Virus record (IMG/VR): IMGVR_UViG_3300013130_000062 | Location: 1 to 21,525 of that record | Source: a virus | Direction: 5' to 3' (one strand) | DNA: 21,525 bases | Shown here: positions 7,111 through 21,525 of the stretch, piece by piece | Layout: each line of letters opens with the position of its first letter | Position numbering within the stretch: position 1 is the first letter of the stretch | The notes under the pieces: generated by a model | The model's input: the letters and a program-made list of their open reading frames with translations, nothing else | Databases searched by the model: none | Told to the model about the DNA's origin: nothing | Program-made: the position numbers and the translations under genes

Positions 7111-8655
7111 ATGAAGATACCATGTGATCAACAAAAAGTTGTTGAATTATATCAGTCTGGTAATAGCCTTAGCGATATTGGGAAATTATGTAATAGAGCA
7201 CCATGTACAATCCTAGTTATATTAAAGAAATATAATGTGCTTAGATCTAAGCAAGATGGTTTAAAATTAGCGAGGGAAAATGGTAAAATTTATAAAAGGA
7301 AACCGATTGACGATATTTTAGAAAATAAAGAATTATTATTAAAGGAATATGAAACACAATCATTAACGGAGATAGCTAATAAATATCATGCTGAACGTAA
7401 AAGATTGGTTAGGGCTTGTGAGAGATTTGGTATTAAGATTAAGTCTTGGAGTGAGAAAGCTCATAATATACAGTCTAGGATTCGTGAGTCTAAATTAGAT
7501 CAGAGAATAATTGATCCCAATTGGATGTATGTTGAATATGTTGATAAACAGAGAGGGATTGATGATATTGCTTTTGAATTGAAGTGTTCTATTACAGCGA
7601 TTAGAAATAGATTGAAAAGGTTTAATATTCAAGTTCGACCACAAAAGAGATTTGGGCGAGAAAAAGAGCCATATAAGAAGTCGCATGGCGTAAATGTTAT
7701 TTATAATCCGATAAAATGCTCTAAAGCTGAGATTATATTTAGATCGATATTAGAATGTACTTATGCCATTTATCTTGATTCTTTGGAAGAAGTCATCTCA
7801 TGGGATTATGAGACTTCTTGGATTTGGTATTTGGATAGTTTTTCTGGGAAGGAAAGAAAATATATTTGTGATTTTAAGATTAAATATACGAATAAGGTTG
7901 AACATGTTGAAGTTAAACCTCTGAATTTACAAACATTTGATGATAAATATTTAAATGCTCAGAGGCAATTAGAAGGATGGAGATGGATTACTGAAGATGA
8001 AATTAAAAAATCTAATGTGTTATTTTCTGTTCCTAATGAGAGAGTTTCATTTTTGATCAAATTCCCAGAAAAAAAGAAAAAATTTGTTGTCTGGTCTAAG
8101 GAAAATCTTGATATACCTAATGGATATAGAATTATTTCGAAACATATAAAATATAATCATATTTATCAATATAAAATAATTAATGATAATTTAATTATAA
8201 ATAGACCTAATATTATTCATTATGATCGTCCTAAAAATTCACAGGCAAGATCTGGTAAAATTATTATTCTTAATTTAGATGAAATTTTGGAATTAATTAA
8301 ACAAAATAGAACTTTATCTGAAATATCAAAAGGGTTTGGTGTCGATTCAAGAACTATTACTAAATTTCTTGAAGATCGTTCTTACGTTATTAGATGGGGT
8401 GGTTCGAGTTCAAAACATAATGAAATTAGATATGCTACCAAATTAATTTGGCCATTAAATGAATTGTCACCTAGAAAAGCAATTAGGAATCATATTTTTT
8501 ATAAATGGGATAATTTTCAATGGCTAAATCAGAAATATATTATAGAAAAGTTGTCTACTAGGGTTATTGGTAAGTCAGTTGGCGTTTCTGGTCGTTTAAT
8601 TTTGAAGAAGTTAAGAAAACATAACATAGAGACGAGGAACTTTAATGGCCGATGA
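7111..8655 (+). CDS. Putative PD-(D/E)XK homing endonuclease with several HTH modules
   Basis: 514 residues. The nuclease core is at about 195-300: a helix with SKAEIIFRSILE (Glu207 or Glu215), then CDFKIKY with Asp254, and VEHVEVKP with Glu267-x-Lys269. This is the E...D...ExK pattern of PD-(D/E)XK enzymes such as TnsA and I-Ssp6803I. Around it are five helix-turn-helix-like segments: about 6-40 (VVELYQSGNSLSDIGKL), 76-108, 136-173, 389-424 (ILELIKQNRTLSEISKGFGV) and 474-508. They probably read a long target site. The gene is very AT-rich, lacks a clear SD and lies between the two halves of a virion gene, as a homing endonuclease should. Its expected target is the uninterrupted form of that gene. 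It overlaps the next small ORF by 11 bases. Nuclease call is fairly confident from motifs; homing role is inferred from position. Confidence 0.72.
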   Translation: MKIPCDQQKVVELYQSGNSLSDIGKLCNRAPCTILVILKKYNVLRSKQDGLKLARENGKIYKRKPIDDILENKELLLKEYETQSLTEIANKYHAERKRLVRACERFGIKIKSWSEKAHNIQSRIRESKLDQRIIDPNWMYVEYVDKQRGIDDIAFELKCSITAIRNRLKRFNIQVRPQKRFGREKEPYKKSHGVNVIYNPIKCSKAEIIFRSILECTYAIYLDSLEEVISWDYETSWIWYLDSFSGKERKYICDFKIKYTNKVEHVEVKPLNLQTFDDKYLNAQRQLEGWRWITEDEIKKSNVLFSVPNERVSFLIKFPEKKKKFVVWSKENLDIPNGYRIISKHIKYNHIYQYKIINDNLIINRPNIIHYDRPKNSQARSGKIIILNLDEILELIKQNRTLSEISKGFGVDSRTITKFLEDRSYVIRWGGSSSKHNEIRYATKLIWPLNELSPRKAIRNHIFYKWDNFQWLNQKYIIEKLSTRVIGKSVGVSGRLILKKLRKHNIETRNFNGR

Positions 8656-12736: not shown

Positions 12737-15646
12737 ATGGCTGTCTACCTCTCCCCTGGCGTTTACCCTCGTGAGATTGACCTGAGCGTGGTGCCAACTG
12801 CTGTTGGCGCTCTTACACCAGTCTTCATTGGCACTGCCAAGAGGGGACCGGTGCAAGATCCCACTTTCATATCAAACTCACAACAGTACATCGATACATT
12901 TGGCAATCCATTCCCAGAGAGTTATCTTGGGTATGCTGTAATTGCCTACTTCGAACAGGGTAATAGGGCCTGGGTCCTACGTGTCGGTGTTGAATGCGAA
13001 GACGGCCAGCCAGACGCGCTTGCCGACATTTGTATCGACACCTCAGGACAGCGAGGACACGGCTGGGGCAGAGTCGCAGTATTCTCAGGAATCGACTTCG
13101 GCAAAATCTGCACCAGAGCAATCAACGCCGATGCGCCATTGGAATTCCACAACGCACTGACATCCAATATCTCCTACAACCAAGTTTCCATTCCAGCTGG
13201 TCATGGTCCAACAACCGCAACACTAAGCTTCACCTCACTGAACAGCTACACTGGCGCTCAAGATGACTCCTACACGGTCCTCATCACCAGCGACGTATCA
13301 GCTAGCAGTGGCTCAACGATTGATGGAGCAACCTACGAAGTAATTAGAAATTCTGACGGATACATTGTTAAGATTGGAACCATTGTTGAAAGTGGTGTTC
13401 CTGGTACGTCCGATCCAATTAATATTGGTGATGGTTTGATCTTCACGGTTGTGGTCACAGGTGTCGAACCAATCAGAATTAATGACACCTTCACATTTGT
13501 GGTTCGCCCAAATAACCGCACTTTCTCCTTCAACGTTGACCGGCAGACGACTGCCGAAAGCGCTGTTACCACGCCAGTTGTTGAGTACACGATTGTTACA
13601 ATTGGTGATGCGACAGTTTCCTATACGTCGGCTGAAGATTTTGCCGATGCAATCAATGCGCTGGTACCAAGCAGCGAGCCGTATAGAGCAATCAATATTG
13701 ATGCCGATGAGACAGTTTGCTTTGAGACTGATGTTGCTGGCCGAAGCATCCAGATAGTTTCAAGGGAAGCTTTCGCTCTTGAAGTTGGTGTTGCTCTCTA
13801 CGCCTTTGACGTTCCACGAAGCCACGTGATGAGCACGGAAGCTGGTCCTTACGACATTACCAACGATAATAACAGAATCAGCGTTAAGATCGTTGGTTTG
13901 ACTGATACAACTGAGATTCAGTTCAGTGTTCCAGTTGGCCTTTCTACTCCTGCCGCTACTCTTGCCGCTTCGCTGAACCTCGGCGGTGTTTATAGCGGAC
14001 AGAGATACTTCAGATCATACTCCATGCTTGTTCCTGGTGGTGAGGAACAGGTGTTCATTGAGATTTCACTGGCTCATCAGTTTGATCAGTTCTACCTACA
14101 GGCAGATTCTTCACACTACAAGACTCTGCGGTTCGCTGAACAGCTAGTGATCCTCTACCCGTACACGTCAGCCTACCAGACTTACAGTGATAGTCGGGTT
14201 GTCCTGCCTGAGCCTGGTGTTGATACCGCCAACGTACCTCGTTCTTGTGAGTTAGACCCATTCAGTGCGGATTGCGCTCTGGATTCGGCTTACTACCAGA
14301 ACGTTGTTGGTTGGCTCGTTGCCACCACGGCTGGCACCTGGATTGACGATTATAGAATTACTCTACAGATTGCTTCACAGGAGAATGGTCCGAACGGCAA
14401 TAACGTTGCTGGTATTTATGACCTGTTGGTTGAGGATTCACTTGGTAATGTTCTTAGTAGAGTTGAGAGCGTAACCTTCGATCCGACCAGCGATGATTAT
14501 ATTGGTAATAAGATAAATCCAGATACCACGATTGGTGGAGCGAATGGTAATGAATACGTTAACTGGATTCCTCGACCTAGCTTCCTGAATAACGATCCGA
14601 TTAACGATCCTGCTAACTTCGAAGTAAGACTGCCTGGTTCGATTTTCCACAGGACATTCGTCGGTTCTGCCAATGGTATTCCTCTCGATCCGGCTTACAG
14701 TTCAGAGTTGGATCGGTCAGTCATTGGTAACCCAGCTCTCGAAACAGGCATCTTCGCTTTCGCCAATCCAGAAGTGTACGACATCACCTTGCTGATAATT
14801 CCTGGTGCAAGCTCTGGTGCCGTGATTGGTCAAGGTCTGCAGATGTGCGAACGGCGCGGCGACATGATGATGATCATCGACCCGCCGTTTGGTTTGAGAG
14901 CGCAGCAGGTTGTGGATTGGCACAACGGAATTCTTTACTCTGACCTTGCTCAGGCAATTAATTCCAGCTATGGTGCTCTCTACCACCCATGGCTCAAGAT
15001 TTATGACCAGTTCAATGGTGATTACATTTTCATCCCTCCAAGCGGTCACGTGAGCCAAGTCTACGCCAAGACGGAACAGACGACAGAGCAGTGGTTTGCT
15101 CCTGCCGGTCTGACTCGCGGTAAGTTGCTGACGCCAATTGATACTGAGGTTGACCTGACTCAGGGTGAACGTGACCTGCTCTACGGTTACGGCAACGCGG
15201 TTAACCCGATTGTCAACTTCCCGCAGGACGGGATTGTGGTTTGGGGTCAGAGAACTCTCCAGAGAAAGCAGTCTGCTCTTGACCGCGTGAACGTCCGCAT
15301 GCTCTTGATTTTTATCAAGAAGAATGCTACTAGATTCCTCCGAACATTTGTGTTCGAACCGAACGATAGAATCACGAGAGCGCAAGTTACCACGATCAGC
15401 AATACTTTCCTTGCTGATATTCAGGCGAGACGCGGCTTGTACGCCTTCAACGTGGTCTGCGACGAACGCAATAATACTCCTGAGAGAATTGATAGGAATG
15501 AGTTGCATGTGGCATACTTCCTGAAGCCGGTGAGAGCTGCAGAATTCATTGTCCTGAATCTGGTTGTCCTGAGGACTGGCGCTTCCTTTGGTGCAGATGA
15601 GATTCTAGCAGCTGGCGGAGTGGTGACGAATCAGGCTGCAGTGTAA
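12737..15646 (+). CDS. Tail sheath protein
   Basis: 969 residues. The N-terminus MAVYLSPGVYPREIDLSV is the classic start of contractile sheath proteins. Next come VFIGTAKRGP and the glycine/tyrosine-containing YAVIAYFEQGNRAWVLRV strand-helix. The C-terminal sheath core is equally clear: IIDPPFGLRAQQVVDWHNG, YPW-type YHPWLKIYD, RGKLLTPI, then WGQRTLQRKQSALDRVNVRM, and the last-strand region PERIDRNELHVAYFLKPVRAAEFIVLNLVV. At 969 residues it is much longer than T4 gp18 (659). The extra length lies in the middle (about 150-600) and looks like beta-sandwich decoration domains on the sheath surface. Codon use is GC-richer than in neighbours, as expected for a protein made in many copies. The protein forms the contracting outer tail tube. 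It has its own leader and a strong terminator. Confidence 0.95.
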   Translation: MAVYLSPGVYPREIDLSVVPTAVGALTPVFIGTAKRGPVQDPTFISNSQQYIDTFGNPFPESYLGYAVIAYFEQGNRAWVLRVGVECEDGQPDALADICIDTSGQRGHGWGRVAVFSGIDFGKICTRAINADAPLEFHNALTSNISYNQVSIPAGHGPTTATLSFTSLNSYTGAQDDSYTVLITSDVSASSGSTIDGATYEVIRNSDGYIVKIGTIVESGVPGTSDPINIGDGLIFTVVVTGVEPIRINDTFTFVVRPNNRTFSFNVDRQTTAESAVTTPVVEYTIVTIGDATVSYTSAEDFADAINALVPSSEPYRAINIDADETVCFETDVAGRSIQIVSREAFALEVGVALYAFDVPRSHVMSTEAGPYDITNDNNRISVKIVGLTDTTEIQFSVPVGLSTPAATLAASLNLGGVYSGQRYFRSYSMLVPGGEEQVFIEISLAHQFDQFYLQADSSHYKTLRFAEQLVILYPYTSAYQTYSDSRVVLPEPGVDTANVPRSCELDPFSADCALDSAYYQNVVGWLVATTAGTWIDDYRITLQIASQENGPNGNNVAGIYDLLVEDSLGNVLSRVESVTFDPTSDDYIGNKINPDTTIGGANGNEYVNWIPRPSFLNNDPINDPANFEVRLPGSIFHRTFVGSANGIPLDPAYSSELDRSVIGNPALETGIFAFANPEVYDITLLIIPGASSGAVIGQGLQMCERRGDMMMIIDPPFGLRAQQVVDWHNGILYSDLAQAINSSYGALYHPWLKIYDQFNGDYIFIPPSGHVSQVYAKTEQTTEQWFAPAGLTRGKLLTPIDTEVDLTQGERDLLYGYGNAVNPIVNFPQDGIVVWGQRTLQRKQSALDRVNVRMLLIFIKKNATRFLRTFVFEPNDRITRAQVTTISNTFLADIQARRGLYAFNVVCDERNNTPERIDRNELHVAYFLKPVRAAEFIVLNLVVLRTGASFGADEILAAGGVVTNQAAV

Positions 15647-15661
15647 ATACAAGAGGATGAT

Positions 15662-15704: not shown

Positions 15705-17156
15705 ATGAATTACATGTCTAATATTTCTCCTTACGTTATTAGTAGTTATTTAACAACAAAAGATAAGGTATCTATTAAATGCCCTAAATGTAATAATATT
15801 AAGATTTGTGTTTTATCATCTCATTTGCAGATTTTAAAAAAGAATAATGGTAAGTATTTATGTCATAAATGTTCTATTGATAGAAATAAATCATCACAAA
15901 TGATGTTAAATAAATGGAAGGATAAAGAATACGCTAATAAAATATTGGCTAATCTTCGATCTGAAAAAATGAAAAATATTATTGTTAATAAGAATAAAAG
16001 ATGTTTTAGTGATAATAATTGGGTTAGTAAGTGGAAGAAAAGTATAAATAGAGAATTAATATCGCAGAAATCAAAAGAGATGTGGTCTGATTCTAATTTC
16101 AGGAAGAGAATATCTAGATCATTTTCTATTAGATGTAAGAAACAATGGCTTGATCCTGAATTTAGGAAGAAAATGATTGATTATAGAAATACAGATCGAT
16201 ATAAATCTAAAATGTTAGATATTAGACAACAAATGGCAATTAGTAAATCAAGTAAACAACAGAATATATTATATGAATTATTAGACGATTTGAATGTTGT
16301 TTATACAAAAGAGGCGTCTATTGGATATTATTTATTTGATTGTTTGATTAATCCACAACCTAAATTATCAATTAATAAATCAATATTAATCGAAGTAAAT
16401 GGTGATTATTGGCATTCTTTACCTAAATCTGTACGCAATGATAGGAGTAAATCAACATATATTAATAGGTATTTCCCACAATATATTATTAAATATATAT
16501 GGGAACATGAATTTATTGCTAAAGATAGAGTATTAAATATACTACGTTATTGGTTAGGTCTAGATAAATTGGCGTTGATACAATTTGATATTAATCAAAT
16601 TTCAGAAAGAATTATTGACTCAAAAGATGCTGAAAAATTTATTGGTAAATATCACTATTCTGGTAAATTAGGTAGATCTGGAATTAATATAGGATATTTT
16701 ATAAATGAAATTTTAATTGCGGTTGTAATTTATTCATTTCCTATAAGGAAAGAAGTATGTGTTAGACTTGGTTATAATTATAATGATGTTAAGGAATTAT
16801 CTAGATTTGTGATTCATCCACAATATCAACATAAGAATATTGGTAGTTTTATAATTTCTAAATCAATTAGATATATAAAGAAATTTCATAATAATATAAA
16901 ATGTTTGGTTAGTTTTGCAGATTCAACATATAATCATATTGGCACAATTTATAAAGCCAGCAATTGGAAGTTTGATGGTATAGTTGAACCTGATTATTGG
17001 TATGTTGATAAAGATGGATATATTTGTCATAAAAAGACTTTATGGGATAAATCTAAAGAAATGAGAATGACTGAAAATGAATATTGTGCAAAATATGGTT
17101 ATCTTAAGGTATGGGGAGGTGAGAAGTTTAGGTATGTATTTGATTTATGCGTCTGA
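15705..17156 (+). CDS. Zinc-ribbon/EDxHD-type nuclease fused to a Mom-like GNAT domain
   Basis: 483 residues. Order: zinc ribbon (Cys26-x2-Cys29 with Cys53-x2-Cys56); three NUMOD3-like repeats at about 71-80, 127-136 and 148-157 (W-x-D/S-x2-Y/F-R/A pattern); an EDxHD/Vsr-like nuclease core at about 186-275 (FDCLI with Asp212, then EVNGDYWHSLP with Glu230, Asp234 and His237, and IWEHE); and a GNAT-like domain at about 305-430 (ELSRFVIHPQYQHKNIGS, VSFADSTYNHIGTIYKASNW). The last motifs resemble phage Mu Mom and its relatives, which modify adenine. The nuclease part resembles I-Bth0305I-type homing enzymes. The gene is very AT-rich and sits alone after the sheath terminator, like a free-standing homing gene. 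The start could also be the ATG at 15714, which has better spacing from GGGG (15699-15702). Whether the GNAT part modifies DNA is unknown. Confidence 0.72.
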   Translation: MNYMSNISPYVISSYLTTKDKVSIKCPKCNNIKICVLSSHLQILKKNNGKYLCHKCSIDRNKSSQMMLNKWKDKEYANKILANLRSEKMKNIIVNKNKRCFSDNNWVSKWKKSINRELISQKSKEMWSDSNFRKRISRSFSIRCKKQWLDPEFRKKMIDYRNTDRYKSKMLDIRQQMAISKSSKQQNILYELLDDLNVVYTKEASIGYYLFDCLINPQPKLSINKSILIEVNGDYWHSLPKSVRNDRSKSTYINRYFPQYIIKYIWEHEFIAKDRVLNILRYWLGLDKLALIQFDINQISERIIDSKDAEKFIGKYHYSGKLGRSGINIGYFINEILIAVVIYSFPIRKEVCVRLGYNYNDVKELSRFVIHPQYQHKNIGSFIISKSIRYIKKFHNNIKCLVSFADSTYNHIGTIYKASNWKFDGIVEPDYWYVDKDGYICHKKTLWDKSKEMRMTENEYCAKYGYLKVWGGEKFRYVFDLCV

Positions 17157-17220
17157 AGCATAGATAGCGATGCGTCTACTGATCCAGGTAGAAGAGGGAG
17201 TTGCAATGCTGCCCAGACGC
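17149..17220 (+). ncRNA. tRNA-like cloverleaf (degenerate tRNA or other structured RNA)
   Basis: GCGTCTG (17149-17155) pairs perfectly with CAGACGC (17214-17220), giving a 72-base unit like a tRNA. Inside, GCAT (17158-17161) pairs with ATGC (17170-17173) around an eight-base loop, and TCTAC (17175-17179) pairs with GTAGA (17188-17192) around an eight-base loop. A third arm, GGGAG with a bulged partner, has a loop starting TTGCAAT rather than TTCGAAT. There is no GG in the D-loop, no proper U33/anticodon placement and no encoded CCA. It overlaps the end of the nuclease-GNAT gene. A functional tRNA is unlikely; a decayed one or a structured leader is possible. Confidence 0.3.
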
Positions 17221-17453: not shown

Positions 17454-20400
17454 ATGTTAACACATCCTTTTAAAGATAAGTGTAATATTGATGATCTTTT
17501 AGATGATTGCGTTACAATTGATAGATTTTGTAATCGTCTGGAATTACAGGCAAAGGAACTTGAAGAGAAATTAGGACCAGAATTAGGTCCAAATGCTGCT
17601 GCTAAATTTAAGGGTGATGGGTTAGAATGTTTAGTAGAATTTTGGATTAAATCTGGGATACGAAGTAATTTTTTAAATATTAGGGACTATACTATCATAA
17701 CTAATGATGATACTGGTGTAGATGGACGTGGAATTTCGACATTAAATGAGCGTGTTAAAACTATACAAGTTAAATATCGTTCTAATCCAATGTATGAATT
17801 AACTGCCAATGATGACCATCTTACTAATTTTGGATTTACTTCGATTGTTCGTTATGGTGTTAAGCCTGAAGATACACATAATATGTTAATTATTACTACA
17901 GGGAAAGATATTAATTATTATACGAAAGAAAATATGTTGCTTAATAAAGTTCAAATCATTGGTCGTGCAACAATAGCTTCTATGCTTGATGGACAATTAA
18001 ATTTTTGGAATAGTTTTAAACAAGCTCTACTTGATTCTAGGATTATTACTAAGGAAATTGAGAAGATTGTGTTACGTCAACATCAGAAAGAAGCTGTCGA
18101 TTCAGTAATTAAGACTATTAAAGATGGTAAATCGGCTGGGTATGTTGAATTACCTACTGGCACTGGTAAGACTTGGGTCCAAGCTGAGATTATTAGACAA
18201 ACCGCTGTACAAGGAATTGCTAAATGTTTTGTTATTTTCTCTCCTAGGATTTTATTATCGTTTCAAATTCTGAAAATGATTTGTAGTTATCTTAGGAGTC
18301 ATGGTGTTGATGCCGAATATTTGAATGTTAATTCTGGTGGTTTTAATGATGAAGAGATTAATAAGTTATGTCTAGAGGCTGGTTTTGAAGCGAATCAAGT
18401 CCATTCTACTACTAATTCTAATGAGATTTATAATATATATAATGCCGCTTTGAAAGCGAATAAACCATTAATTATTTCTTCTACTTATCATTCTGCTGAT
18501 AAGATTCAGAATTCTAAAATTAAAGTTGATATTCAATTAAATGATGAGGCACACCATTTAGTTTCAGAGGAATTTAGTAAATTTGCTAAGATTGGTTGTG
18601 CGTCATTTTCTTTTACCGCTACTCCTAAGGATACTTATAGCGGACAATTTATTGGTATGAATAATGTTGGAATTTTTGGAGAAAGGATCTATTATAAGAC
18701 TCCACGAGAAATGATTGATGAAGGTGAAATGCTCCGGCCATTTCTTCATATAATTCGTGCTGGTGGTAAACATAGTGATAATCCAGTTGATGTTTGGAAT
18801 TGTATTGTAGATGCTTTTGCGAAGCATCGAAAACAAATCCAAGATAAATCATGTGATCCTAATAAGATTGGCGCTAAACTTCTAGTTACCTTAAATGGCC
18901 AGAAGACATTAGAGGGCATCATTAAATCAGAAGAATTTGAGAAATTCCAGAATGATAATCCTGATATTGTTCTTATGGCTCTTTCGTCAGATGTTGGAGT
19001 TTATCATAATGGTAAACTAGAGGAATGTTCAAATAGAGCGAAGAAAGAATTATTTGATGAATTGTCACATAAATTATCAGATACTCAACAAGCGATTATT
19101 CTATATGTTGATATGTTAGGTGAAGGAATTGATGTCCCTGGTATTACTGCTTATATGCCTATTCGTGGGCTTGGTGATTCAACGTTTAAACAAGGAATTG
19201 GTCGAGCTTGTCGGCTTCAACATGAGGATAGGAAAAAGTTATATCAGAAAATTCTTAAACCAGATCAGCATAGTAGGTATATTAAGCCATTTGCTTGGGT
19301 TATTGTTCCTGATTTGATTACTGGATCTGAAGATAATTTAGAAAGATATTGGAATCTTCTACAAATGCTTTATGATGAATATGGTTTTGAACATGAGTGT
19401 TTGATAATTGATGACTCTAATGGTAAGGATAAGGAGGAAATTGAAGATTCTGAGACTGTTAAGAAGGATCAAAAACAGTCTAGTAAGGAGGAGATAGAGA
19501 AATTAGTGCATGAATATTTTGAGGAAATAGATCGCCCAATGGATATTCATGATATGGCTTTTATTGATATTATTAATAGCGATGCTTGTTTGAGTAGTCA
19601 TGAATTGACTGAAAAGATTTTTGATAAGGTCAAGGTCGATCTCAAAGATCAGTTAAAGGATTATAAATTTAGGGCGCTTAGGAGATTGAGAATAGGAGAT
19701 GATTACTTGAAGATGATTACACGAGCTAAGAAGAAGCATAATGGGGTTTTTGCGGAAGAGATAAAAAATAAGTTTGGTACAATTTATACTCCTGAGTTTG
19801 TCGTTGAGAAGACTTGTGAATTGGCTTTTAAGTATATTCCTAAAGAAGCAGATTTGTTGAGTTTGACTTATTGTGATCCTGCCTGTTACAGTGATGATAC
19901 TGAAGTTCTTACAGATACTGGTTGGAAATTCTTTAAAGATCTTCAAGATAATGATCTAATTTATAGTTTAAATCCAATTACCAAAGATGGCGAATATGTT
20001 AGGTTCATAGCAAGACAAATTAAAGAACATAAAGGAATAATGCATCACTATAATGGTAAGCGCTTTGATTTATTGGTAACACCCGACCATTCAATGTATG
20101 TTGAAAGTAGGCTAAAAACTAGGCATAATAATAGATTTATAAAAAGTAGTGATTTATTTAAATCTAATTCAAGAGGAAACACTGTCGCTTTTGTGGCTGC
20201 TGCACCGCTACAATCCTATAATGGAAAGGTTGGTTGGAACGAAGATCATTATAGATTATTTGGTTTGTGGTTAGGAGATGGTTATATTTTCAAGAATAAT
20301 AGTAAACAGCATAATGCTTTTGGTTTTGGAGTTGTCAAACCGCGTGAAATAAATTGTATCGTTAAATGCTTGGAAAATTTAAATTTTCCATACACAACTG

Positions 20401-21525
20401 GTATTGGAAAAGATGGCAAAACTTGGTTCCGTGTTGTTGATAAAGATTTCCTTAGTTTTATTAGCCCACTAGATGGTACACATAATAAATATATCCCAAG
20501 AGAGATAATATTCTCTTCTAAACATCTGTTAGAAGCATTAATAGACGGTTTAATGAATAGTGATGGTAGTACTAGTGTAACAATCGACGCACCATCTATC
20601 GGTGAACGTCGAATTTTAGAATTTCCAGTTAATCGTCAAACTTACTATTCATCTAACAAAAGGTTAGCGGAAGATGTTCAGCGTGTCGCTATCCACATGG
20701 GAGTAGCGACCAATTTTCATATGCGAATGCGGCCTATCCATTCTAGTATACCTAACATAATGATTCCATGTTATGAAGTAAGCCTAGGAGCAAGACGAGA
20801 TAAATCGGTTAGAAAGAAATTGCCGCCTAGATCAGTTAGCGAACAGTTTTATACGAATAATGTTTATTGTATTACTCTAGAAAGAAATCATATTATGTTG
20901 GTACGACGTAATGGTAAATCGGTCTTCTGTGGAAACTGTGGTGATGGTAATTTCTTGATTTATCTTTATCATAGGTTGATGAAGGTTGAGAATGAGTTAA
21001 AACCAATTGAGAAATCGGAACATATTTTGACGAAGTGTTTGTTTGGGTTGGAGATTTTGAAGCCAATGCATTTGGCTTGTAAGCTTAGGTTGTTGAATGA
21101 GCACCTAAAATTGGGTGGTGATTTGAGGATTTTTGATAAGTTGAATATTAGTTGGGGTAATACTATTATGGTTCCTGAGGATGTTGGTAAATGGGAGATT
21201 AAGGAATATGAGGGCGGATTACTCCCTGAAGAAATTAGGAATAGAAAGTATGATGTGATTGTGGGAAATCCGCCATATACACATCTTCGCAACTTGGAAA
21301 ATAGGAAATATTCTTCTTATCCTAAGCAAAGGGATATGGCACAAGTGTTCGTAAGATGGGGGTTAGACCATATTACAGGGGAAGGTGTTGTGAGTTACAA
21401 CACAACGGATACTTGGCTTAGTGTTAAGATTTGCGATGGGGCGAAGGAAACCAGGAAGCTTATTGATAATAGACTTAGAGAAGTTATCCAGAATGAAGAA
21501 GTTACAAGATATAGTGAAAACGATG
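17454..21525 (+). CDS. Type ISP-like restriction-modification enzyme (nuclease-helicase-N6-adenine methylase) with intein; 3' partial
   Basis: At least 1357 residues; runs off the window. The start has GGAG (17443-17446) seven bases upstream. Domains: Mrr-like PD-(D/E)XK nuclease (Glu58, Asp90 in GVDGRG, Gln105-Val-Lys107); SF2 translocase with Walker A PTGTGKT (Lys239), DEAH (364-367), TATP (388-391) and motif VI QGIGRACR (580-587); a charged linker; then a gamma-class N6-adenine methylase with motif I DPA|CGDGNFL split by an intein (811-1161) and motif IV NPPY (1272-1275). This order is that of LlaGI/LlaBIII, single-chain enzymes that methylate one strand and cleave after head-on translocation. 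The target-recognition domain should lie beyond the window. All visible catalytic motifs are intact. In a phage it may act against competing DNA or protect the phage's own. AT-rich like the accessory genes before it. Confidence 0.88.
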   Translation, partial: MLTHPFKDKCNIDDLLDDCVTIDRFCNRLELQAKELEEKLGPELGPNAAAKFKGDGLECLVEFWIKSGIRSNFLNIRDYTIITNDDTGVDGRGISTLNERVKTIQVKYRSNPMYELTANDDHLTNFGFTSIVRYGVKPEDTHNMLIITTGKDINYYTKENMLLNKVQIIGRATIASMLDGQLNFWNSFKQALLDSRIITKEIEKIVLRQHQKEAVDSVIKTIKDGKSAGYVELPTGTGKTWVQAEIIRQTAVQGIAKCFVIFSPRILLSFQILKMICSYLRSHGVDAEYLNVNSGGFNDEEINKLCLEAGFEANQVHSTTNSNEIYNIYNAALKANKPLIISSTYHSADKIQNSKIKVDIQLNDEAHHLVSEEFSKFAKIGCASFSFTATPKDTYSGQFIGMNNVGIFGERIYYKTPREMIDEGEMLRPFLHIIRAGGKHSDNPVDVWNCIVDAFAKHRKQIQDKSCDPNKIGAKLLVTLNGQKTLEGIIKSEEFEKFQNDNPDIVLMALSSDVGVYHNGKLEECSNRAKKELFDELSHKLSDTQQAIILYVDMLGEGIDVPGITAYMPIRGLGDSTFKQGIGRACRLQHEDRKKLYQKILKPDQHSRYIKPFAWVIVPDLITGSEDNLERYWNLLQMLYDEYGFEHECLIIDDSNGKDKEEIEDSETVKKDQKQSSKEEIEKLVHEYFEEIDRPMDIHDMAFIDIINSDACLSSHELTEKIFDKVKVDLKDQLKDYKFRALRRLRIGDDYLKMITRAKKKHNGVFAEEIKNKFGTIYTPEFVVEKTCELAFKYIPKEADLLSLTYCDPACYSDDTEVLTDTGWKFFKDLQDNDLIYSLNPITKDGEYVRFIARQIKEHKGIMHHYNGKRFDLLVTPDHSMYVESRLKTRHNNRFIKSSDLFKSNSRGNTVAFVAAAPLQSYNGKVGWNEDHYRLFGLWLGDGYIFKNNSKQHNAFGFGVVKPREINCIVKCLENLNFPYTTGIGKDGKTWFRVVDKDFLSFISPLDGTHNKYIPREIIFSSKHLLEALIDGLMNSDGSTSVTIDAPSIGERRILEFPVNRQTYYSSNKRLAEDVQRVAIHMGVATNFHMRMRPIHSSIPNIMIPCYEVSLGARRDKSVRKKLPPRSVSEQFYTNNVYCITLERNHIMLVRRNGKSVFCGNCGDGNFLIYLYHRLMKVENELKPIEKSEHILTKCLFGLEILKPMHLACKLRLLNEHLKLGGDLRIFDKLNISWGNTIMVPEDVGKWEIKEYEGGLLPEEIRNRKYDVIVGNPPYTHLRNLENRKYSSYPKQRDMAQVFVRWGLDHITGEGVVSYNTTDTWLSVKICDGAKETRKLIDNRLREVIQNEEVTRYSEND
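19884..20936 (+). mobile_element. LAGLIDADG intein in methylase motif I
   Basis: 351 residues in frame. It starts at Cys1 (CYSDDTEVLTDTGWKFFKDL, block A) right after DPA; block B is LLVTPDHSMYV with Thr66-x-x-His69. Two LAGLIDADG helices follow: LFGLWLGDG (about 125-133) and LIDGLMNSDG (about 219-228). Block F is VYCITLERNHIMLV, and it ends FCGN|C, terminal Asn351 with Cys+1. The penultimate residue is Gly rather than the usual His. Removal gives DPACGDGNFLI, a perfect N6-methylase motif I. The splicing residues Cys1, Asn351 and Cys+1 are all present, so splicing is expected. The acidic residues of both LAGLIDADG motifs are kept, so homing activity is plausible. Confidence 0.93.

What the first reader, a model, noticed from the sequence alone, without database searches (positions are those of the whole stretch)
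17454..21525. Phage-borne single-chain Type ISP-like restriction-modification enzyme next to virion genes
One reading frame carries an Mrr-like nuclease, an SF2 translocase and an N6-adenine methylase with all visible catalytic motifs intact. Such enzymes are normally bacterial or plasmid defence systems. Here it lies 1.8 kb downstream of a tail sheath gene, behind a free-standing nuclease. It could exclude rival phages, damage unmodified host DNA, or protect the phage through its methylase.
Basis: partly seen in the sequence, partly recalled or inferred. Interest (0 to 1): 0.78.

Follow-up and report, generated by a model that had tools for sequence, protein, structure and literature searches.

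The report
Intein-split phage restriction-modification enzyme
A virus of bacteria carries one gene that strings together a DNA cutter, a DNA motor and a DNA methylator, resembling a bacterial defence enzyme; its methylator is interrupted by a self-splicing insert, and its closest relatives are sets of separate genes found in many other large phages rather than in bacteria.

Summary
The open frame at 17454-21525 (3' end cut off by the contig) encodes a PD-(D/E)XK nuclease, an SF2 translocase and an N6-adenine methyltransferase. Exact excision restores motif I. The nuclease model (pLDDT 94) best matches LlaBIII, the Type ISP prototype (Z 10.0). By descent, however, it is not canonical Type ISP: its helicase groups with phage helicases, and a clade with Type ISP is rejected (AU p 0.003). 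Its nearest relatives are a phage cassette of four separate genes (nuclease, helicase, catalytic methyltransferase half, AdoMet half), complete in 34 of 40 distinct loci; 788 of 789 sampled bacterial genomes lack the nuclease. The window gene is the only nuclease-helicase fusion among them. The 'free-standing nuclease' next door is a Mom-nuclease fusion, conserved behind the sheath gene in relatives, so there is no phage/bacterium join at 15650. Best reading: a phage-lineage, single-chain, ATP-dependent restriction-modification-like enzyme that needs protein splicing to methylate. The recognition domain and all activities are untested.

The parts
17454..18065 (+). N-terminal Mrr/LlaBIII-like PD-(D/E)XK nuclease domain (conserved E58, D86, D90, Q105, K107)
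   Evidence: phrog_7683 E 2.6e-27; 33-sequence alignment with invariant residues; AF2 model pLDDT 94.2; best VIA match LlaBIII 4xqk Z 10.0, rmsd 3.4, 136 aligned
18066..19600 (+). SF2 helicase-like translocase domain
   Evidence: PF04851 E 7e-19; phrog_16 E 2e-28; groups with phage helicases, not Type ISP
19773..19883 (+). First part of N6-adenine methyltransferase, motif X-like FGTIYTPEFVV and first half of motif I (DPA)
   Evidence: sequence; alignment to Type ISP; 'small' half HMM 27.6 bits on the spliced extein
19884..20936 (+). In-frame 351-aa intein with LAGLIDADG homing endonuclease, CYSDD...VFCGN|C, splitting motif I
   Evidence: TIGR01443 17.7 bits, cut-off 15.6; PF14528 23.7, cut-off 22.5; end-to-end alignment with inteins in unrelated exteins; 80 relatives with mostly the same ends in many host sites
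20937..21525 (+). Second part of methyltransferase (motif I CGDGNF, catalytic NPPY at 21267-21278), cut by contig end; recognition domain missing
   Evidence: PF07669 E 6.7e-12; ORF open at the 3' end
15705..17156 (+). Neighbour: nuclease fused to Mom-family (GNAT) DNA-modification domain; possible second modification-restriction gene
   Evidence: PF25680 108 bits; phrog_1384 Mom-like and phrog_3339 homing endonuclease; relatives directly behind sheath in L006, L007, L008, L010
12737..15646 (+). Tail sheath gene (969 aa), phage anchor of the locus
   Evidence: phrog_23 E 3e-86; PF17482 and PF04984
15662..15688 (+). Strong intrinsic-terminator-like hairpin after the sheath gene
   Evidence: 12-bp stem and T tail

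Best explanation
It is a phage-lineage, single-chain, ATP-dependent restriction-modification-like enzyme in Type ISP order (nuclease, SF2 motor, adenine methyltransferase, presumably a recognition domain beyond the contig end). It is made as a precursor whose methyltransferase motif I is split by a homing intein. Splicing joins DPA to CGDGNF and makes the methyltransferase competent (inferred). The mature enzyme would then work like LlaGI/LlaBIII: bind an asymmetric site, methylate one adenine, or, on unmodified DNA, translocate with ATP and cut when two motors meet (inferred by analogy). In the phage it would mark phage DNA and attack unmarked DNA of rivals or of the host (inferred). Shown: domain composition and order, nuclease fold model, intein boundaries, phage-side ancestry of the nuclease and helicase. 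Not shown: splicing, methylation, cutting, specificity, role.
For: Domains and motifs. Nuclease fold nearest LlaBIII. Catalytic residues conserved across 33 nucleases. Co-linear with Type ISP enzymes, one of which matches LlaBIII/LlaGI at 1196 and 1137 bits. Intein ends exact and shared with viral relatives. Closest relatives of nuclease and helicase are phage cassettes (35-43% identity) and the tree supports this. The cassettes pair nuclease and helicase with a methyltransferase split in complementary halves, fused in L227, L233 and L235, which supports a restriction-modification unit. Nuclease family found in 1 of 789 sampled bacterial genomes, against 6 of 6 viral positives.
Against: The gene is cut at the contig end, so the recognition domain and the integrity of the C-terminus are unknown. 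The region between motor and methyltransferase is short (about 100 aa) and was not shown to be a coupler. The window helicase sits on a long branch. The methyltransferase part aligns only weakly, to Type ISP (22% identity over ~240-310 aa) and to the phage AdoMet halves, so its own origin is unclear. A join between two phage contigs between 17156 and 17454 cannot be excluded.
Confidence: 0.62

Rival explanations
1. A canonical bacterial Type ISP enzyme picked up recently by the phage.
For: Same domain order; methyltransferase part aligns over ~240-310 aa with Type ISP enzymes; nuclease fold nearest LlaBIII.
Against: Bacterial Type ISP only ~23% identical, phage cassettes 35-43% in nuclease and helicase; Type ISP helicases form a fully supported separate side and window+ISP is rejected, p 0.0026; best match in the bacterial genome scan E 2e-12 versus E ~1e-100 in phages.
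Confidence: 0.1
2. Modification-only role: the gene protects phage DNA through its methyltransferase and the nuclease and motor are vestigial.
For: Orphan methylases are common in phages (PMC9957025); Mom modification gene next door.
Against: PD-(D/E)XK and SF2 motifs intact here and conserved in nuclease relatives; nuclease and motor genes accompany the methyltransferase in 34 of 40 loci.
Confidence: 0.13
3. Nuclease-motor machine for host-genome breakdown or phage DNA processing, with the methyltransferase only marking self DNA, rather than exclusion of rival phages.
For: Cassettes sit in phage contigs up to 548 kb; some cassette helicases lie beside a group of short phage helicases, probably UvsW-like, in the tree.
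Against: The window phage's nearest relatives lack the nuclease in the sequence held, so it is accessory and not a core replication need.
Confidence: 0.1
4. Assembly chimera or decayed gene: the restriction-modification frame is joined artificially, or is inactivated.
For: Single fragment, base composition differs between genes, gene unfinished; no overlapping contig found.
Against: Mom-nuclease gene is syntenic behind the sheath in four related contigs; nuclease and motor are phage-type; the frame is open for 4.1 kb including the intein.
Confidence: 0.05

Closest known systems
Type ISP restriction-modification enzymes LlaBIII and LlaGI (PDB 4xqk, 5ffj)
   Same: Single chain; Mrr-type nuclease, SF2 ATPase, adenine methyltransferase in the same order; nuclease model Z 10.0 to LlaBIII
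   Different: Helicase groups with phage cassettes; ~23% identity to Type ISP; intein in motif I; short linker in place of a proven coupler; recognition domain not seen
Phage four-gene cassette (phrog_7683 nuclease, phrog_16-type helicase, Eco57I-type NPPY protein, small AdoMet-half protein), e.g. Synechococcus phages ACG-2014f and S-CAM7
   Same: Closest relatives of nuclease and helicase; same functional set
   Different: There the parts are separate genes with a methyltransferase split into complementary halves; here one chain with a continuous methyltransferase apart from the intein. No description found in the open-access papers searched
Phage inteins with LAGLIDADG endonuclease, including those in methylases (EBPR siphovirus 2 gp50; actinophage methylases, PMC9957025)
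   Same: Same splicing signatures, 28% identity end to end with the gp50 intein
   Different: Known relatives sampled sit elsewhere (motif IV NPPF/DPPY, portal, thymidylate synthase and others); none of the 80 sampled sits in motif I
Mom-REase fusions of jumbo phages (PMC7824862)
   Same: Neighbour 15705-17156 is such a fusion, predicted there to be a modification-restriction pair
   Different: Separate gene; not part of the chain

Membership tests
Type ISP restriction-modification enzyme | N-terminal Mrr-family nuclease | tested here: met
   Model pLDDT 94; LlaBIII top of the VIA list, Z 10.0; D..D..QxK conserved
Type ISP restriction-modification enzyme | SF2 helicase-like ATPase in the same chain | tested here: met
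   ResIII 68.7 bits and motifs
Type ISP restriction-modification enzyme | Helicase groups with Type ISP helicases | tested here: not met
   Type ISP rows form one side with 100% support; AU test rejects window+ISP, p 0.0026
Type ISP restriction-modification enzyme | All-helical coupler domain between ATPase and methyltransferase | tested here: inconclusive
   About 100 aa of unassigned sequence there, shorter than in the aligned Type ISP proteins; not modelled
Type ISP restriction-modification enzyme | Gamma-class N6-adenine methyltransferase (order X-I-IV, recognition domain after it) | tested here: inconclusive
   YTPEFVV, DPA/CGDGNF after removal of the intein, and NPPY come in the right order; the part after motif IV is beyond the contig
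Type ISP restriction-modification enzyme | C-terminal target-recognition domain | not testable with these tools
   Contig ends inside the methyltransferase
Type ISP restriction-modification enzyme | One-strand m6A at an asymmetric site and ATP-dependent cutting by two converging enzymes | not testable with these tools
   Needs experiment
Intein (class 1, large, LAGLIDADG) | N-terminal Cys, block B TxxH, C-terminal Asn followed by Cys/Ser/Thr | tested here: met
   C1, TPDH...CGN|C; ends shared with relatives in other exteins
Intein (class 1, large, LAGLIDADG) | Two LAGLIDADG motifs with acidic residues | tested here: met
   LFGLWLGDGY and LIDGLMNSDGS; PF14528 above cut-off on the intein alone
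Intein (class 1, large, LAGLIDADG) | Excision leaves a functional extein; splicing occurs | not testable with these tools
   Motif I is restored in sequence, aligned to uninterrupted motif I of Type ISP and comparable with phage halves such as PACGDGQF of L229; splicing itself unmeasured
Mom family (neighbour gene) | Mom GNAT domain | tested here: met
   PF25680 108 bits, cut-off 27.1

The most novel reading that the evidence does not exclude
Large phages carry their own lineage of ATP-dependent restriction-modification machines, undescribed as such, mostly as four genes with a methyltransferase split in trans into an AdoMet half and a catalytic half. The window gene is a natural one-chain fusion that shows what the four genes do together, and its intein makes modification a step that depends on protein splicing, possibly a switch.
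Probability: 0.4. Interest if true: 0.8.

Novelty: new variant of a known kind. Interest (0 to 1): 0.62.

Why it matters
The fused gene links four phage proteins, usually annotated as helicase, methyltransferase or hypothetical, into one predicted restriction-modification machine found in dozens of phage contigs. If right, these phages would carry their own self/non-self DNA weapons, with a naturally split methyltransferase that could be tested at once in known cyanophages such as ACG-2014f. The intein in motif I gives a clean test of whether splicing gates DNA modification.

Tried and rejected
Close relatives of the whole protein by peptide patterns: none in viral or genome collections, so an alignment was used instead. 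phmmer against the PDB found only weak XPB helicase matches. The intein was folded without an alignment and gave a useless model (pLDDT 32). A mixed alignment of separate nucleases and helicases misaligned them (A3) and was not used. Foldseek alone gave no PDB match below E 0.001; the second look with VIA did. Exact search for a contig extending the 3' end: none. Rfam: no match. PADLOC: only partial helicase or methylase domain matches. Literature searches for phage-borne Type ISP, for this cassette, or for an intein in a restriction enzyme's motif I found no description; only open-access papers were searched and some queries were narrow. Considered and dropped: contig join between phage and bacterial DNA at 15650, because the Mom-nuclease gene is syntenic there in relatives.
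Full report
What is there. The window is a complete 21,525-base IMG/VR record, a linear fragment of a contractile-tailed phage. It carries baseplate (gp25, J-like), neck, sheath-stabiliser-like and sheath genes. It encodes a nuclease matching phrog_7683 (E 2.6e-27), an SF2 motor (ResIII, E 7e-19) and an Eco57I-type adenine methyltransferase (E 7e-12).

Between DPA and CGDGNF, the two parts of the AdoMet-binding motif I, lie 351 in-frame residues (19884-20936) that form an intein: Cys1, TPDH, two LAGLIDADG motifs with their acidic residues, and a C-terminal Asn before Cys+1. NCBI's intein C-terminal model scores 17.7 against a cut-off of 15.6, and PF14528 passes its cut-off on the insert alone. 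The ends align exactly with inteins in unrelated hosts: a portal protein (L083), gp50 methylase of EBPR siphovirus 2, and thymidylate synthase of Corynebacterium phage P1201. A scan found at least 421 viral stretches encoding relatives; in the best 80 the same N-terminal Cys and mostly CGN/SGN/TGN ends sit in many different host sites, some in what look like methyltransferase motif IV sites (NPPF, DPPY) but none in motif I. Removing the intein gives DPACGDGNF, which aligns to uninterrupted motif I of Type ISP enzymes and resembles that of phage proteins such as L229 (PACGDGQF). So the methyltransferase as encoded is interrupted, and as spliced it is complete through motif IV. Splicing itself is inferred.

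Is it Type ISP? By way of working, plausibly. The order nuclease - SF2 motor - X-I-IV methyltransferase is that of LlaGI and LlaBIII (PMC4872093), and Type ISP relatives, one of which matches LlaBIII at 1196 bits, align co-linearly. A 33-sequence alignment gave a confident nuclease model (pLDDT 94.2, pTM 0.91); among the chains compared, LlaBIII ranks first (Z 10.0, rmsd 3.4, 136 residues), ahead of AspBHI (8.9) and MspJI (8.4). By descent, no. Nuclease and helicase are 35-43% identical to the closest phage proteins but about 23% to bacterial Type ISP. In a 57-row helicase tree Type ISP forms one side with 100% support, and the window lies with phage cassette helicases; holding the window with Type ISP is rejected (p 0.0026). 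The window is on a long branch, so its exact place within the phage side is unsure. The methyltransferase part aligns weakly to both sides and its origin is open. I therefore do not file it as a Type ISP member.

The phage cassette. Scans with the extein and with the nuclease alignment returned viral loci that repeatedly carry four neighbouring genes: nuclease (~195 aa), SF2 helicase (~500 aa), an NPPY methyltransferase protein (~400 aa) and a small protein (~140 aa). After removal of near-identical loci there are 41 including the window; 34 of the other 40 have all four functions nearby, in several gene orders, and the window is the only nuclease-helicase fusion. The two methyltransferase proteins are complementary: separate small proteins have motif I in 33 of 34 and motif IV in none, whereas separate NPPY proteins have motif IV in 32 of 33 and a motif I match in one. 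In L227, L233 and L235 both are fused into one ~510-540 aa methyltransferase in the order small then NPPY. This suggests a methyltransferase split in trans, and the single-chain window gene supports reading the set as one machine. Cultured or complete-genome examples are Synechococcus phages ACG-2014f and S-CAM7, where the parts are annotated as helicase, DNA methyltransferase and hypothetical proteins. The nuclease profile found one weak partial match in 789 sampled genomes of three bacterial phyla, but six of six viral positives with E below 1e-58.

Setting. The gene at 15705-17156 is a nuclease joined to a Mom-family domain; such fusions in jumbo phages have been predicted to be modification-restriction pairs (PMC7824862). 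Its relatives lie directly behind the sheath gene in L006, L007, L008 and L010, so the contig is continuous there. In relatives the stretch between sheath and tail-tube genes holds nothing (L005), or a CYTH-like protein, a radical-SAM-like protein and a uracil-DNA-glycosylase-like protein (L006), or an HNH-like gene (L010) (these names are my reading of the sequences). It is an accessory-gene site, and two related phage records lack the restriction nuclease in the sequence held. The join between 17156 and 17454 has no independent support.

How it most likely works. Shown: parts, order, fold model, intein boundaries, phage ancestry of nuclease and motor. Inferred: the precursor splices; the mature chain methylates an asymmetric site and cuts unmodified DNA after ATP-driven travel; the phage uses it against rival or host DNA. 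Because the intein breaks motif I, methylation should depend on splicing, while the nuclease and motor are translated ahead of it. Whether this is regulatory or simply a parasite in a conserved site is unknown; inteins commonly sit in conserved sites (established knowledge), so the second is the default.

Verdict. New variant of a known kind.

Noticed in passing
L089, L091, L095, L096, L099, L100, L107, L216-L261, L084, L085: Phage four-gene cassette with a methyltransferase split into an AdoMet half (motif I, no NPPY) and a catalytic half (NPPY, degenerate motif I); fused in L227, L233, L235.
   Followed up: partly
15705-17156: Mom-family (GNAT) domain fused to a nuclease, directly behind the sheath gene; same fusion at the same place in L006, L007, L008, L010.
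   Followed up: partly
17148-17220: GCGTCTG...CAGACGC stem structure between the Mom-nuclease gene and the restriction-modification gene, more stable than shuffles (z -2.65), no Rfam match.
   Followed up: no
7111-8655: AT-rich 514-aa gene with helix-turn-helix repeats and HNH/head-closure profile matches inside the virion module; possibly a homing endonuclease gene.
   Followed up: no
12737-15646: Sheath protein is 969 aa, about twice the length of the phrog_23 profile (496), so it seems to carry large insertions.
   Followed up: no
L274, L279, L320, L330: Relatives of this intein sit in what look like methyltransferase motif IV sites (NPPF, DPPY), so methyltransferase active sites are recurrent intein targets.
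   Followed up: partly
BFVD hits A0A481Z4U3, A0A1V0SJ58, A0A345MNC6: The nuclease model matches parts of long helicase-named proteins of pithovirus- and klosneuvirus-like giant viruses, and a 762-aa viral protein that may be another nuclease-helicase fusion.
   Followed up: no
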